A DNA stretch of 34,950 nt from Acidimicrobiaceae bacterium (GTDB taxonomy: Bacteria > Actinomycetota > Acidimicrobiia > Acidimicrobiales > Bog-793): positions 36,622 to 71,571 of the forward strand of contig PMVZ01000242.1 in assembly GCA_003166375.1 (NCBI GenBank), read 5' to 3'. The notes under the pieces were generated by a model. That model saw only the letters and a program-made list of their open reading frames with translations. It was not told where the DNA came from and did not search any database. The translations under genes were made by a program, and so were the position numbers. How positions within the stretch are numbered: the first letter of the stretch is position 1; each line of letters begins with the position of its first letter. Shown here piece after piece: positions 20,277-23,813 of the stretch.

Positions 20277-20567
20277 ATGGAAAGCATCACCCGACGGAGC
20301 TTTCTCAAGCGAGGTGGGACCGGGGTTGCAGCGGCGGGCGTCTTTGCCGCCGTCCCGTCGTTCCCTGGGCTGGCGTTGGCCTCACGCAGGCCCGCGACGG
20401 TTCACAACGACGGCGTCGCTGCACCCGCAGGGCGGGCCGCCACCGGGCCGCTTGTCGTGCACATCCCGGACCCGCGCAGCGGTGAAGTTCACCTGATGGT
20501 CGGCACCCGTGAAGTGGTCACCCGAGACTCGACTCTAGTCGCGCGGCTGTTGCGCGCGGCCGGTTGA
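20277..20567 (+). CDS. Small Tat-signal exported protein of unknown function
   Basis: This 96-aa protein has a textbook twin-arginine signal: TRRSFLK at residues 5-11, then a hydrophobic core (GVAAAGVFAAVPSFPGLA) and an ALA cleavage site near residue 35. Only about 60 residues remain after cleavage, ending VHIPDPRSGEVHLMVGTREVVTRDSTLVARLLRAAG, which contains no cofactor motif I recognise. ATG 20277 follows AGGGGGG at a good distance. The gene lies 95 bp ahead of a DUF4331 gene in the same direction. Similar pairs are, as far as I recall, found in other actinobacteria, so the two products may act together. Function unknown. Confidence 0.8.
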   Translation: MESITRRSFLKRGGTGVAAAGVFAAVPSFPGLALASRRPATVHNDGVAAPAGRAATGPLVVHIPDPRSGEVHLMVGTREVVTRDSTLVARLLRAAG

Positions 20568-20575
20568 GCCAAGTA

Positions 20576-20618
20576 CCGCCGCCAGGCGGACCCCGCCCGA
20601 GCATCGCCTCCAGGCGAT
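20576..20618. other. Two small hairpins between the Tat gene and the DUF4331 gene
   Basis: CCGCC/GGCGG (20576-20589) and ATCGCCT/AGGCGAT (20603-20618) are inverted repeats with short loops. They may attenuate transcription or stabilise the upstream mRNA, setting unequal levels of the two proteins. No T-tract follows. Confidence 0.4.
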
Positions 20619-20662
20619 CTCCCATGACCCGGTCCCGGACAAACAGTGAGGTGTAAGAAACG

Positions 20663-21586
20663 ATGTCTTCTCACCGAGAAGCTCCCGAGATCTCACGGGA
20701 CCCCGTAGCAGACAGCGCGGACCTCTATGCGTTCGTGAGCCCGGACAGCCCGAGCACTGTCACGAACATCGCGAACTACGTGCCCCTTCAACAGCCCGCC
20801 GGAGGCCCGAATTTCTATGAGTTCGGTGACGACGTGCTGTACGAGGTCCACATCGACAACGACGGCGATGCCCGAGCCGACATCACCTACCAGTTCCGGT
20901 TCAACACCGTGCTCACCAACACCGGTGCGAACGACCTGTTCCTCTACAACACCGGCCAGATCAAGCATCTGAGCGACAAGACCTGGAACCGCAAGCAGTT
21001 CTATTCGCTCACCCGCGTGGACAAGAACGGCTCGCACCTGCTGGCCAAGGACCTGGCGTGCCCACCGTGCAACGTCGGCAAGAACTCGATTCCCGACTAC
21101 GCCCCGCTCGCCGCTGAGGCGGTTCACCCACTCGGCTCGGGCGGCTACGTCTTCGCCGGCCAGCGTGCCGACGGCTTCTACGTCGACCTCGGGTCGATCT
21201 TCGACCTCGGCGACCTCCGGCCGTTTCAGGCGGACTTCCTCCTCAAGGGATCGGCGGTGGCAGGAGTCAACACCCTCGCCGGGCTGAACGTCCACAGCAT
21301 CGCCATCCAGGTCTCGATCGGAGATCTCACGCGCGACGGATCCAGGCCGACCCTCTACAGCGCCCCCGCCTCGACCATCGGGCTGTGGACCACGGCCAGC
21401 CGCCAGAAGACGCTGATCTACGGCAACCCGGCCACCCACGCGGGGCCGTGGATGCAGATCTCGCGCCTTGGCAACCCGCTCTTGAGCGCCTTCGGCCTCA
21501 CCTACCGGGACTTCTTCCCTTACCTCGGCGACGCGTGGGACGGCTACGACAACCCGTCAACCCAGAACCTCCCAGTTGCCGGCTGA
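20663..21586 (+). CDS. DUF4331 family protein, short form
   Basis: The 307-aa protein begins directly with the family hallmark SSHREAP and continues DPVADSADLYAFVSPDSPSTVTNIANYVPL, FYEFGDDVLYEVHIDNDGDARADITYQFRF, DLFLYNTG, YVFAGQRADGFYVDLGSIFDLGDLRPF, NVHSIAIQVSIGDLTRDG and ISRLGNPL. Other family members usually continue well beyond SRLGNPL; here the protein ends about 35 residues later with a Tyr/Asp-rich tail. No signal peptide is present although many homologues are exported. GAGGTG lies 9 nt before the ATG. The function of DUF4331 is unknown. It lies between a Tat-signal protein and a His-rich protein. Confidence 0.9.
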   Translation: MSSHREAPEISRDPVADSADLYAFVSPDSPSTVTNIANYVPLQQPAGGPNFYEFGDDVLYEVHIDNDGDARADITYQFRFNTVLTNTGANDLFLYNTGQIKHLSDKTWNRKQFYSLTRVDKNGSHLLAKDLACPPCNVGKNSIPDYAPLAAEAVHPLGSGGYVFAGQRADGFYVDLGSIFDLGDLRPFQADFLLKGSAVAGVNTLAGLNVHSIAIQVSIGDLTRDGSRPTLYSAPASTIGLWTTASRQKTLIYGNPATHAGPWMQISRLGNPLLSAFGLTYRDFFPYLGDAWDGYDNPSTQNLPVAG

Positions 21587-21590
21587 CGAG

Positions 21591-22001
21591 ATGGCTCCGA
21601 GTGGACCAAGGCCAGCGACGATGCGACAACACGTGCATTCCCACCTTGGCCCGGCCCACCACGCTCACCCCGGTGAAGTTCCATTGGCCGGGGAGGCACC
21701 CCGGCCGGCCGACCCGAGCCGTGCGGTGATGGTGGACGTCGGTGAGCACAGGGGCGCACTGGTATTGACGGCGCCCGCGGAGCGTGAGGGCTTCGAGGTC
21801 GAGATCCACCCCGCCTCGGACCCGTCACGGCACACGCACGTGTGGGTGCTGCCGCGCGTGGGACAGAGCGTCACGGTCTACGCGGCGGTGTTCCCGAGCC
21901 TGCCTGCGGGCGACTACGCGGTGCTCAAGCCGGACGGTTCGACCGGGATGATCGTCTCGGTGCCGGCCAACCAGTTGACGAGCGCCACCTGGGACCAATA
22001 G
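21591..22001 (+). CDS. Hypothetical protein with His-rich N-terminus
   Basis: This protein has about 136 residues. A His-rich segment (HVHSHLGPAHHAHPGE) is followed by a strand-rich domain: AVMVDVGEHRGALVLTAPAEREGFEVEIHP, THVWVLPR, VYAAVFPSLPAGDYAVLKPDG. That domain resembles small actinobacterial proteins I have no name for. The histidines could bind a transition metal, which is inference. The start is uncertain: ATG 21591 lies just after the DUF4331 stop, and ATG 21621 (starting MRQHVHSHLG) is about equally likely. It is the last gene of the cassette and converges on pckG, with only 21 bp between the stops. Confidence 0.65.
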   Translation: MAPSGPRPATMRQHVHSHLGPAHHAHPGEVPLAGEAPRPADPSRAVMVDVGEHRGALVLTAPAEREGFEVEIHPASDPSRHTHVWVLPRVGQSVTVYAAVFPSLPAGDYAVLKPDGSTGMIVSVPANQLTSATWDQ

Positions 22002-22022: not shown

Positions 22023-23813
22023 TCAACCGAGGCGCTGGCGGAGCGCCTCGAGCTGGTCGGAGATGGCCTTCGGCAGCCGATCCTCGAACTGGGCGAAGTA
22101 CTCGACGATGGGGGGCAGCTCCGCCCGCCATTCGTCGCGGTCGACCCGCAGCAGCTCGGCCATGTCCTCCTCGGGGACGTCGAGGCCTTCGACGTCGATC
22201 GTGCCCGTGGCCGGAAGGTAGCCAATGGGTGTCTCGACGACTTCGCCGCGGCCCGCGCAGCGGTCGAAGACCCACTCGAGGACGCGGGAGTTATCGCCGA
22301 AGCCGGGCCACAAAAAGCGCCCGTCGGCGGACTTGCGGAACCAGTTGACATAGAAGACCCGGGGCAGCTTCGTCTTGTCCATCCGGTCCCCGAGCGACAG
22401 CCAGTGTGCCCAGTAGTCGCCCATGTTGTAGCCGCAGAACGGCAGCATCGCGAACGGGTCGCGTCTCAGCTCACCCACGGCCCCCGTCGCGGCGGCGGTT
22501 GTCTCCGAAGCCAGGATCGAGCCCAGGAACACACCGTGCGCCCAGCTGAAAGCCTCGTGGACGAGCGGGACGACCGATGCGCGCCTGCCACCGAACAGGA
22601 TGGCCGAGATGGGCACACCCTCGGGGTCCTCCCACTCGTCGGCGATCGCCGGATCCTGGCTGGCTGGGGCGGTGAAGCGTGAATTCGGGTGCGCGGCGGG
22701 CGTCGGGGACTCAGGTGTCCAGTCGTTGCCCCGCCAGTCGGTGCAATGGGCCGGCGGCTCCTCGGTGAGGCCCTCCCACCAGATGTCGCCGTCGTCGGTG
22801 AGCGCCGTGTTCGTGAAGATGGAATTGGCCGCCAATGTAAGCAGCGCATTCGGGTTGGTCACCATGTTCGTGCCCGGCGCCACCCCGAAGAAACCAGCCT
22901 CCGGATTGATGGCCCGGAGCATCCCGTCCGGTCCGATCTTCATCCAGCAGATGTCGTCCCCGATCGTTTGGACCTTCCAGCCCGGCATCGTCGGGACGAG
23001 CATGGCGAGATTCGTCTTGCCGCAGGCCGAAGGGAAGGCCCCGGTTACATAGCGCACCTCACCGGCAGGCGAGGTCAGCTTCAAGATCAGCATGTGCTCG
23101 GCGATCCAGCCCTCGTCGCGCCCGATCACCGACGCGATCCGCAGCGCAAAGCACTTCTTGCCCAACAGGGCATTGCCGCCGTAGCCGGAACCGAACGACC
23201 AGATCTCGCGGGTCTCGGGAAAGTGACTGATGTAGATCTGCTCAGGGTGGCAGGGCCACGCAACGTCGTGTTGGCCGGGGGCGAGAGGGACCCCGACCGA
23301 GTGCAGGCAGGGCACGAAGTCACCGTCGTCGCCCATCACCTCGAGCACTGCCGAGCCCATCCTCGTCATGATGCGCATGTTCACGACCACATACGGCGAG
23401 TCGGTGATCTCGACGCCGATGTGAGCGATCGAGGACCCGAGCGGGCCCATGGAGAAGGGCACGACGTACATGGTCCGGCCCCGCATCGCGCCCCCGAACA
23501 GGTCCCTCAACGTCGTGCGCATCTCGGCGGGGTCCACCCAGTTGTTGGTCGGGCCCGCATCCTGTGGACTGGCCGAGCAGACAAACGTACGGCTCTCGAT
23601 CCGGGCGACGTCGGCCGGGTCCGAGCGGGCCCAGTAGCTGTTCGGGCGCTTTGCGTCGGACAGCTTCGTGAACGTTCCCCGATCCACGAGAACTCGGCAC
23701 AGTCGTTCGTACTCGTCGGCCGAACCATCGCACCACTCGACCCGGTCGGGTTGCGTGAGCGCAGCGACATCGTCGACCCAGTCAAGGAGTTTGCGGTTGC
23801 GAGTCTCTGCCAT
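22023..23813 (-). CDS. pckG: Phosphoenolpyruvate carboxykinase (GTP)
   Basis: This 596-aa cytoplasmic enzyme converts oxaloacetate and GTP to PEP, GDP and CO2, the first committed step of gluconeogenesis. GTP-type signatures include the substrate loop [12 protein letters not shown], kinase-1a P-loop FPSACGKTN with the reactive Cys264, the kinase-2 metal site TIGDDICWM, and the nucleotide site region [18 protein letters not shown]. Length is normal for the GTP class and unlike the ATP class. ATG 23813 is supported by TTGGGA-N18-TACGAT ending 6 nt upstream and by the lack of a ribosome site. It diverges from thiL with a 98-bp shared promoter region. Confidence 0.97.

What the first reader, a model, noticed from the sequence alone, without database searches (positions are those of the whole stretch)
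20277..22001. Three-gene cassette: tiny Tat protein, signal-less DUF4331 protein, His-rich protein
The first gene encodes a perfect Tat signal attached to only about 60 residues. The next encodes a DUF4331 protein that starts at the family hallmark SSHREAP with no signal of its own. The third is His-rich and uncharacterised. A hypothesis is that the small Tat protein carries the folded DUF4331 protein through the Tat pore as a hitchhiker, with the His-rich protein supplying or sensing a metal. No function is known for any of the three.
Basis: partly seen in the sequence, partly recalled or inferred. Interest (0 to 1): 0.6.

Follow-up and report, generated by a model that had tools for sequence, protein, structure and literature searches.

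The report
Tat carrier cassette for DUF4331 protein
A tiny protein with an export tag, its tagless DUF4331 neighbour and a third small protein form a three-gene unit kept together in many soil and acid-loving bacteria, most likely so that the tagged protein carries the folded DUF4331 protein across the membrane, an arrangement that no paper found here describes.

Summary
In detail: a 96-aa Tat protein (61 residues after the likely cleavage site), a signal-less DUF4331 protein starting Met-SSHREAP, and a 136-aa protein with a His-rich leader. The unit is real and widespread. In 198 genomes of the order, the first and third genes occur in the same 14 genomes, always beside DUF4331. In 80 named genomes with Met-SSHREAP DUF4331 (Actinobacteria, Chloroflexi, Dormibacterota), all 80 have both partners. 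In contrast, 43 of 43 other DUF4331 proteins carry their own signal ending exactly before SSHREAP, and none has either partner. So SSHREAP is the mature N-terminus, and one clade moved its export signal onto a separate Tat protein. Extra tatA or tatC genes sit beside the cassette in five loci from four lineages. A second, unrelated Tat protein is paired with another signal-less DUF4331. Best explanation: Tat hitchhiking, like MelC1/MelC2 but with unrelated proteins. New here: nearly every DUF4331 examined presents a free N-terminus with His at position 3, the ATCUN metal-site pattern, so metal loading before export is plausible but untested.

The parts
20277..20567 (+). P1: small Tat-signal protein (96 aa), proposed export carrier for DUF4331
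   Evidence: relatives upstream of DUF4331 in 14/14 order genomes and 80/80 named loci, all on the same strand
20277..20381 (+). Tat signal (MESITRRSFLKRGG...GLALA, likely cleavage after Ala35)
   Evidence: TIGR01409 23.4 bits vs cut-off 16.7; twin-Arg motif in 77/80 relatives, 76 of them canonical
20448..20564 (+). conserved ~39-residue C-terminal segment of P1 (PLVVHIPDPRSGEVHLMVGTREVVTRDSTLVARLLRAAG), proposed docking segment
   Evidence: alignment A1; conserved Gly, Gly, Asp and Leu in 80 relatives
20663..21586 (+). P2: DUF4331 protein (307 aa), no signal of its own
   Evidence: PF14224 E=1.3e-87; 14/14 cassette members start directly before SSHREAP
20666..20686 (+). SSHREAP: N-terminus after removal of the initiator Met, equal to the mature N-terminus of secreted relatives; His at position 3
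   Evidence: 43/43 secreted relatives have a signal ending directly before [SA]SHREAP, Ala at -1 in 40; distant subfamilies start M|SHH, M|ADH, M|SDH, M|PDH
21059..21070 (+). CPPC motif of DUF4331
   Evidence: nearly invariant in the cassette class
21478..21520 (+). junction of the ~165-residue in-frame deletion relative to all 13 other order cassettes (between RLGNPL and FPYLG)
   Evidence: alignment A3; only DUF4331 copy found in this genome
21591..22001 (+). P3: 136-aa accessory protein without signal
   Evidence: relatives next to DUF4331 in 14/14 and 80/80; inverted but still adjacent in 7 loci
21621..21677 (+). His-rich leader of P3
   Evidence: His-rich leaders in 34/80 relatives
21741..21995 (+). 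P3 beta-sandwich domain, eight strands, with a conserved His (residue 83)
   Evidence: AlphaFold2 model, pLDDT above 92 over residues 51-136; His83 invariant in 14 and about 91% in 80 relatives

Best explanation
The three genes encode a Tat hitchhiker export unit. DUF4331 (P2) is made without a signal; its initiator Met is removed and it folds in the cytoplasm, giving an N-terminus Ser-Ser-His. The conserved C-terminal segment of P1 binds the folded P2, and the Tat signal of P1 takes the complex through the Tat translocase. In some species an extra TatA or TatAC encoded next door serves this cargo. P3, a signal-less beta-sandwich protein often with a His-rich leader, most likely works in the cytoplasm as an assembly factor (metal buffer or donor, or chaperone); it could instead be a third passenger. 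The likely reason for using Tat rather than the Sec route of sister proteins is that P2 must fold, and perhaps bind a metal, before export. Shown: the anatomy, the obligate linkage, the signal dichotomy, the shared mature N-terminus (by sequence) and the nearby tat genes. Inferred: binding, co-export, the role of P3 and the metal.
For: Same 14 of 198 order genomes for P1 and P3, all adjacent to DUF4331. 80/80 named loci carry both, with P1 always on the same strand (median gap 27 bp) and P3 adjacent even when inverted. No P1 without DUF4331: the six matches in 396 phylum genomes that reach the conserved C-terminal segment all lie just upstream of DUF4331; the weaker ones match mainly the Tat signal. 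Own-signal DUF4331: 43/43 have neither P1 nor P3, their signals end exactly before SSHREAP and none has a canonical Tat motif. Extra tat genes beside the cassette: TatA in G114 and G081, TatC in G078, TatAC in L077, TatA in L079, each in addition to tat genes elsewhere in the genome. A second, unrelated Tat protein lies directly downstream of signal-less M-ADHLDAP DUF4331. Distances of P1 and P2 correlate at r=0.83. Precedent: MelC2 lacks a signal and is secreted by hitchhiking on Tat protein MelC1 (PMC2758597).
Against: No direct localisation or binding evidence; no complex could be modelled. The own-signal/cassette split is one branch of the DUF4331 tree (support 100), so the perfect association reflects one transition plus long retention, not many independent events. 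Signal-less DUF4331 with no adjacent Tat partner exists in distant subfamilies (M-SHHLDSP), so DUF4331 can possibly stay in the cytoplasm. Most cassettes, including the window's, have no adjacent tat gene. One P1 (L079) lacks the twin Arg although a TatA lies beside it. The window's P2 lacks about 165 residues and may not fold.
Confidence: 0.7

Rival explanations
1. P1 is exported alone, or stays anchored by an uncleaved signal, while DUF4331 and P3 remain in the cytoplasm; the three form a signalling or stress unit split across the membrane.
For: DUF4331 has no signal; signal-less subfamilies without an adjacent Tat protein exist; ECF sigma or anti-sigma genes lie beside several cassettes; only 60 of 80 P1 proteins show an AxA motif in the expected range.
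Against: Every own-signal sister DUF4331 in the sample is predicted to be exported with the same mature N-terminus, and extra tat genes next to cassettes make most sense if the cassette needs Tat capacity.
Confidence: 0.15
2. P1 is not a carrier but a small Tat-exported subunit or anchor that joins DUF4331 outside, while DUF4331 leaves by another, non-classical route.
For: Strict co-occurrence would also fit a subunit.
Against: It needs an unknown second export route, and the loss of the DUF4331 signal coincides with the gain of P1 on the tree.
Confidence: 0.07
3. The window's copy is a non-functional remnant: an in-frame deletion removed a conserved third of DUF4331, so here the cassette is decaying, or the assembly collapsed. 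(This concerns the copy, not the system, and can hold together with the best explanation.)
For: About 165 residues are absent, including the GGDxAGFPNGRRVFDDV block that is mostly 90% or more conserved; long branch of 0.81 against a median of 0.29; the genome is a 397-contig assembly at 84% completeness.
Against: The frame is open, P1 and P3 are intact, and the C-terminal family motif is kept.
Confidence: 0.35
4. P3 is a third passenger exported with P1 and P2 as a ternary complex, like PaoABC, rather than a cytoplasmic helper. (A variant of the best explanation.)
For: No signal on P3, strict linkage, and an eight-strand beta-sandwich of the kind common in secreted proteins; a ternary precedent exists (PMC4273604).
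Against: Its His-rich leaders resemble those of cytoplasmic metal-storage helpers (general knowledge); its own strand and position vary.
Confidence: 0.35

Closest known systems
MelC1/MelC2 of Streptomyces (Tat caddie and tyrosinase)
   Same: Two-gene operon in Actinobacteria: a small Tat-signal helper gene directly upstream of a cargo gene whose product has no signal; the helper carries the cargo out and is needed for copper loading (PMC2758597).
   Different: No sequence relation found: P1 and P3 match no MelC1 family in Pfam or NCBIfam, and the cargo is DUF4331. There is also a third conserved gene, and sister cargo proteins use their own signal.
PaoABC of E. coli (ternary Tat hitchhiker)
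   Same: Signal-less subunits exported through one Tat-signal partner (PMC4273604).
   Different: PaoABC subunits form a cofactor enzyme; P1 has only about 60 residues beyond its signal and matches no family after it.
PhoD-TatAdCd of Bacillus subtilis
   Same: Dedicated tat genes lie beside the gene of their cargo (PMC3068169), as beside some cassettes.
   Different: PhoD carries its own signal; here the cargo has none, and most cassettes, including the window's, rely on tat genes elsewhere.
CucA (Sec) and MncA (Tat) cupins of cyanobacteria
   Same: Related proteins, one using Sec and one using Tat so that it folds and takes its metal in the cytoplasm (PMC4192464).
   Different: MncA is itself the Tat substrate; no metal has been shown for DUF4331.
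DUF4331 (Pfam PF14224)
   Same: Gene 2 is a clear sequence member.
   Different: The window copy is about 165 residues shorter, and the cassette class lacks the signal that all 43 own-signal members sampled have.

Membership tests
Tat hitchhiker complex | One partner has a functional-looking twin-arginine signal | tested here: met
   TIGR01409 above cut-off; RR motif in 77/80 relatives
Tat hitchhiker complex | The other partner has no signal of its own | tested here: met
   14/14 and 80/80 have ATG, GTG or TTG directly before SSHREAP
Tat hitchhiker complex | The two proteins form a complex before export | not testable with these tools
   complex prediction not available; strict linkage and r=0.83 distance correlation only
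Tat hitchhiker complex | The signal-less partner is found outside the cytoplasm in a Tat-dependent way | not testable with these tools
   no localisation data; no paper in the library names DUF4331
MelC1 family | Sequence match of the helper to the MelC1 family | tested here: not met
   no such Pfam or NCBIfam match for P1 or P3
DUF4331 (PF14224) | Score above the Pfam gathering cut-off | tested here: met
   295 bits vs 27
DUF4331 (PF14224) | Full-length domain | tested here: not met
   positions 1-264 of 421 plus a C-terminal remnant; about 165 residues missing
ATCUN metal-site proteins | Free N-terminus with sequence X-X-His (definition: PMC7701195) | tested here: inconclusive
   sequence pattern met in own-signal, cassette and distant classes; N-terminal processing is inferred
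ATCUN metal-site proteins | Binds Cu(II) or Ni(II) | not testable with these tools
   needs biochemistry
Dedicated Tat translocase with its cargo (PhoD-TatAdCd type) | tat genes next to the cargo gene | tested here: not met
   not in the window genome, whose only TatA and TatC matches lie on contig C366; met in five other cassette loci

The most novel reading that the evidence does not exclude
DUF4331 is a widespread family of exported metalloproteins whose hallmark is a processed N-terminus H2N-X-X-His that coordinates a metal. One clade moved its export signal onto a dedicated mini Tat carrier and recruited a His-rich beta-sandwich metallochaperone, so that the metal is chosen in the cytoplasm before export. 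This would be a complete three-part metal-loading and Tat-export system, in some species with its own translocase.
Probability: 0.25. Interest if true: 0.8.

Novelty: new variant of a known kind. Interest (0 to 1): 0.62.

Why it matters
Tat hitchhiking is known from a few cases. This would be a large, genetically simple one: a carrier of about 60 mature residues, strictly tied to one cargo family in many genomes, with sister cargo proteins that use their own signal as a natural control. It would make a direct test possible of how a minimal docking segment takes a folded protein through Tat, and of why a family switches export route. It also gives the first lead on what DUF4331, a domain without a described function, needs: a free N-terminus with His at position 3.

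Tried and rejected
A P3 search of genome contigs with the single sequence found nothing, because its conserved stretches are short; family-wide evidence came from DUF4331 and profiles built here. P3 in plasmids: none. The DUF4331 structure model had mean pLDDT 53 and was not used. P3 fold search gave no PDB match at E<=0.001; among the nearest were carbohydrate-binding CBM41 domains at E about 0.02, too weak to name a function. No solved structure matches DUF4331 by sequence; one irrelevant weak match for P3. P1-DUF4331 fusions as direct proof: none seen. Other conserved neighbours: none beyond the three genes; genes shared by about 20 loci seem to be confined to close relatives of Actinoplanes. 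Upstream start for DUF4331 in the window: excluded by an in-frame stop. The His-rich leader as the defining feature of P3: rejected, because many relatives lack it. No paper found for DUF4331, PF14224, IPR025566 or SSHREAP.

Full report
What is there. The window is part of a 397-contig genome assembly. Three + strand genes form a self-contained unit between an MFS-like transporter gene (ends 20105) and a convergent PEP carboxykinase-like gene (stop at 22023). P1 (20277-20567) is a Tat-signal protein: MESITRRSFLKRGGTGVAAAGVFAAVPSFPGLALA|S..., with 61 residues after the likely cleavage site and a conserved 39-residue end. P2 (20663-21586) is DUF4331, E=1.3e-87, starting Met-SSHREAP. P3 (21591-22001) matches no Pfam or NCBIfam family; it has a His-rich leader and an eight-strand beta-sandwich modelled with high confidence.

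Conservation in the order. In 198 genomes of the order, DUF4331 occurs in 32, P1 in 14 and P3 in the same 14, always in the order P1-DUF4331-P3. All 14 cassette DUF4331 proteins start directly before SSHREAP, 13 with ATG and one with TTG.

Conservation beyond. A scan of named genomes with the cassette DUF4331 alignment returned the best 80 of 568 relatives: Streptomyces, Kitasatospora, Kribbella, Actinoplanes and relatives, Janibacter, Phycicoccus, Thermogemmatispora, Ktedonobacter-type Chloroflexi, Thermomicrobiales, Dormibacterota and others. Profiles built only from the 14 order members find P1 and P3 beside DUF4331 in 80 of 80. P1 is always on the same strand, median gap 27 bp; P3 is on the opposite strand in seven loci (L082, L083, L089, L093, L095, L102, L109) yet still adjacent. 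The search pattern contained MSSHREAP, so this set was chosen for a Met start, but not for neighbours.

The signal dichotomy. Among 56 DUF4331 loci sampled in the order and phylum that could be read, 43 have their own N-terminal signal and none of these has P1 or P3; 13 start with Met-SSHREAP and all have both. In all 43 the signal ends directly before [SA]SHREAP; Ala is at -1 in 40 and a small or allowed residue at -3 in 43; none has a canonical Tat motif. So SSHREAP is the mature N-terminus (inference from sequence). In the cassette class the signal has been replaced by a bare start codon, and a Tat signal has appeared on a neighbour. On a tree of 89 sequences the two classes are separated by one branch with support 100: one transition, then long retention. 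The perfect association must be read with that in mind.

Links to the Tat machinery. Extra tat genes lie beside the cassette in five loci: TatA upstream in G114, TatA downstream in G081 (same family as the window genome), TatC upstream in G078 (at a contig end), a complete second tatA-tatC pair in L077 (Dormibacterota) and an extra TatA in L079 (Solirubrobacterales). In each genome other tat genes lie elsewhere. G114 and G078 share a genus, so these are four lineages. In the flanks of the other named loci only one weak, probably spurious TatA match appeared. A comparable arrangement is known for PhoD and TatAdCd in Bacillus (PMC3068169). The window genome shows only one TatA and one TatC match, both away from the cassette.

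A second Tat partner. A distant signal-less DUF4331 (M-ADHLDAP) in one genus is followed 28 bp downstream by a 162-aa protein with the Tat signal NRRDFLK that is not a P1 relative beyond the signal. A 48% identical paralogue in the same genome also lies directly beside a DUF4331 match. In contrast, the M-SHHLDSP subfamily has no adjacent Tat protein, which weakens any rule that all signal-less DUF4331 must be exported.

The N-terminus. Distant subfamilies also put His at position 3 of the processed N-terminus: M|SHHLDSP, M|ADHLDAP, M|SDHIDSP, M|PDHIDSP and GFG|ADHLDAP. For the SDH and PDH cases the start codon is read as the L or V before it and was not checked further. This is the pattern of the ATCUN metal site, H2N-X-X-His (PMC7701195). 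For the larger classes the search regex required His at position 3, but only two loci with strong DUF4331 matches (L200, L201) failed it, and the distant set was read with a looser pattern; three of those twelve gave no match, one of which starts MSNH. Removal of Met before Ser or Ala is general knowledge. Metal binding is a hypothesis.

Mechanism. The data fit best with Tat hitchhiking: P1 binds folded DUF4331 and takes it through Tat, as MelC1 does for MelC2 (PMC2758597). The advantage over Sec may be folding and metal choice in the cytoplasm, as for MncA against CucA (PMC4192464). P3 may be a cytoplasmic helper; His-rich leaders occur in 34 of 80 relatives, and a conserved His sits in its core. 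ECF sigma or anti-sigma genes lie near several cassettes (identified by eye from sequence), which suggests control by an envelope signal (inference).

Caveat on this copy. The window's DUF4331 lacks about 165 residues that all 13 other order cassettes have, including the GGDxAGFPNGRRVFDDV block, and sits on a long branch. It could be a reduced, decaying or mis-assembled copy. The conclusions about the system rest on the relatives, not on this copy.

Verdict. Novelty: a new variant of a known kind, Tat hitchhiking with a dedicated mini carrier, for a domain on which no paper was found in the library.

Noticed in passing
window 20663-21586: DUF4331 here lacks about 165 residues in frame relative to all 13 other order cassettes; only copy found in this genome.
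   Followed up: partly
L221 2552-3037, L222 2928-3413 (G308, G233): A different 162-aa Tat protein lies directly downstream of a signal-less M-ADHLDAP DUF4331: a second, independent pairing.
   Followed up: partly
L219 3884-4891, L223 4540-5583, L224 4353-5453, L225 3959-4996: Signal-less DUF4331 (M-SHHLDSP, M-SNH) with no adjacent Tat protein; location and role unclear.
   Followed up: partly
L077, L079, L089, L091, L095, L100, L101, L115, L129, L133: ECF sigma and/or anti-sigma factor genes close to the cassette in several phyla, suggesting control by an envelope signal.
   Followed up: partly
L079 765-1319: P1 relative whose signal reads TRLSFIK, without the twin Arg, in a locus that has an extra TatA next door.
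   Followed up: no
L098, L103, L105, L106, L113, L117-L119, L122, L124, L138, L140-L142: In Actinoplanes relatives a gene resembling a lytic polysaccharide monooxygenase (signal then His) lies just upstream of P1; may only reflect kinship.
   Followed up: no
L002, L005, L007, L009, L173-L179: Several own-signal DUF4331 proteins end in a hydrophobic stretch followed by Arg/Lys, like surface-anchored proteins.
   Followed up: no
G104 contig C70: A second tatA/tatC cluster away from the cassette in a cassette genome.
   Followed up: no
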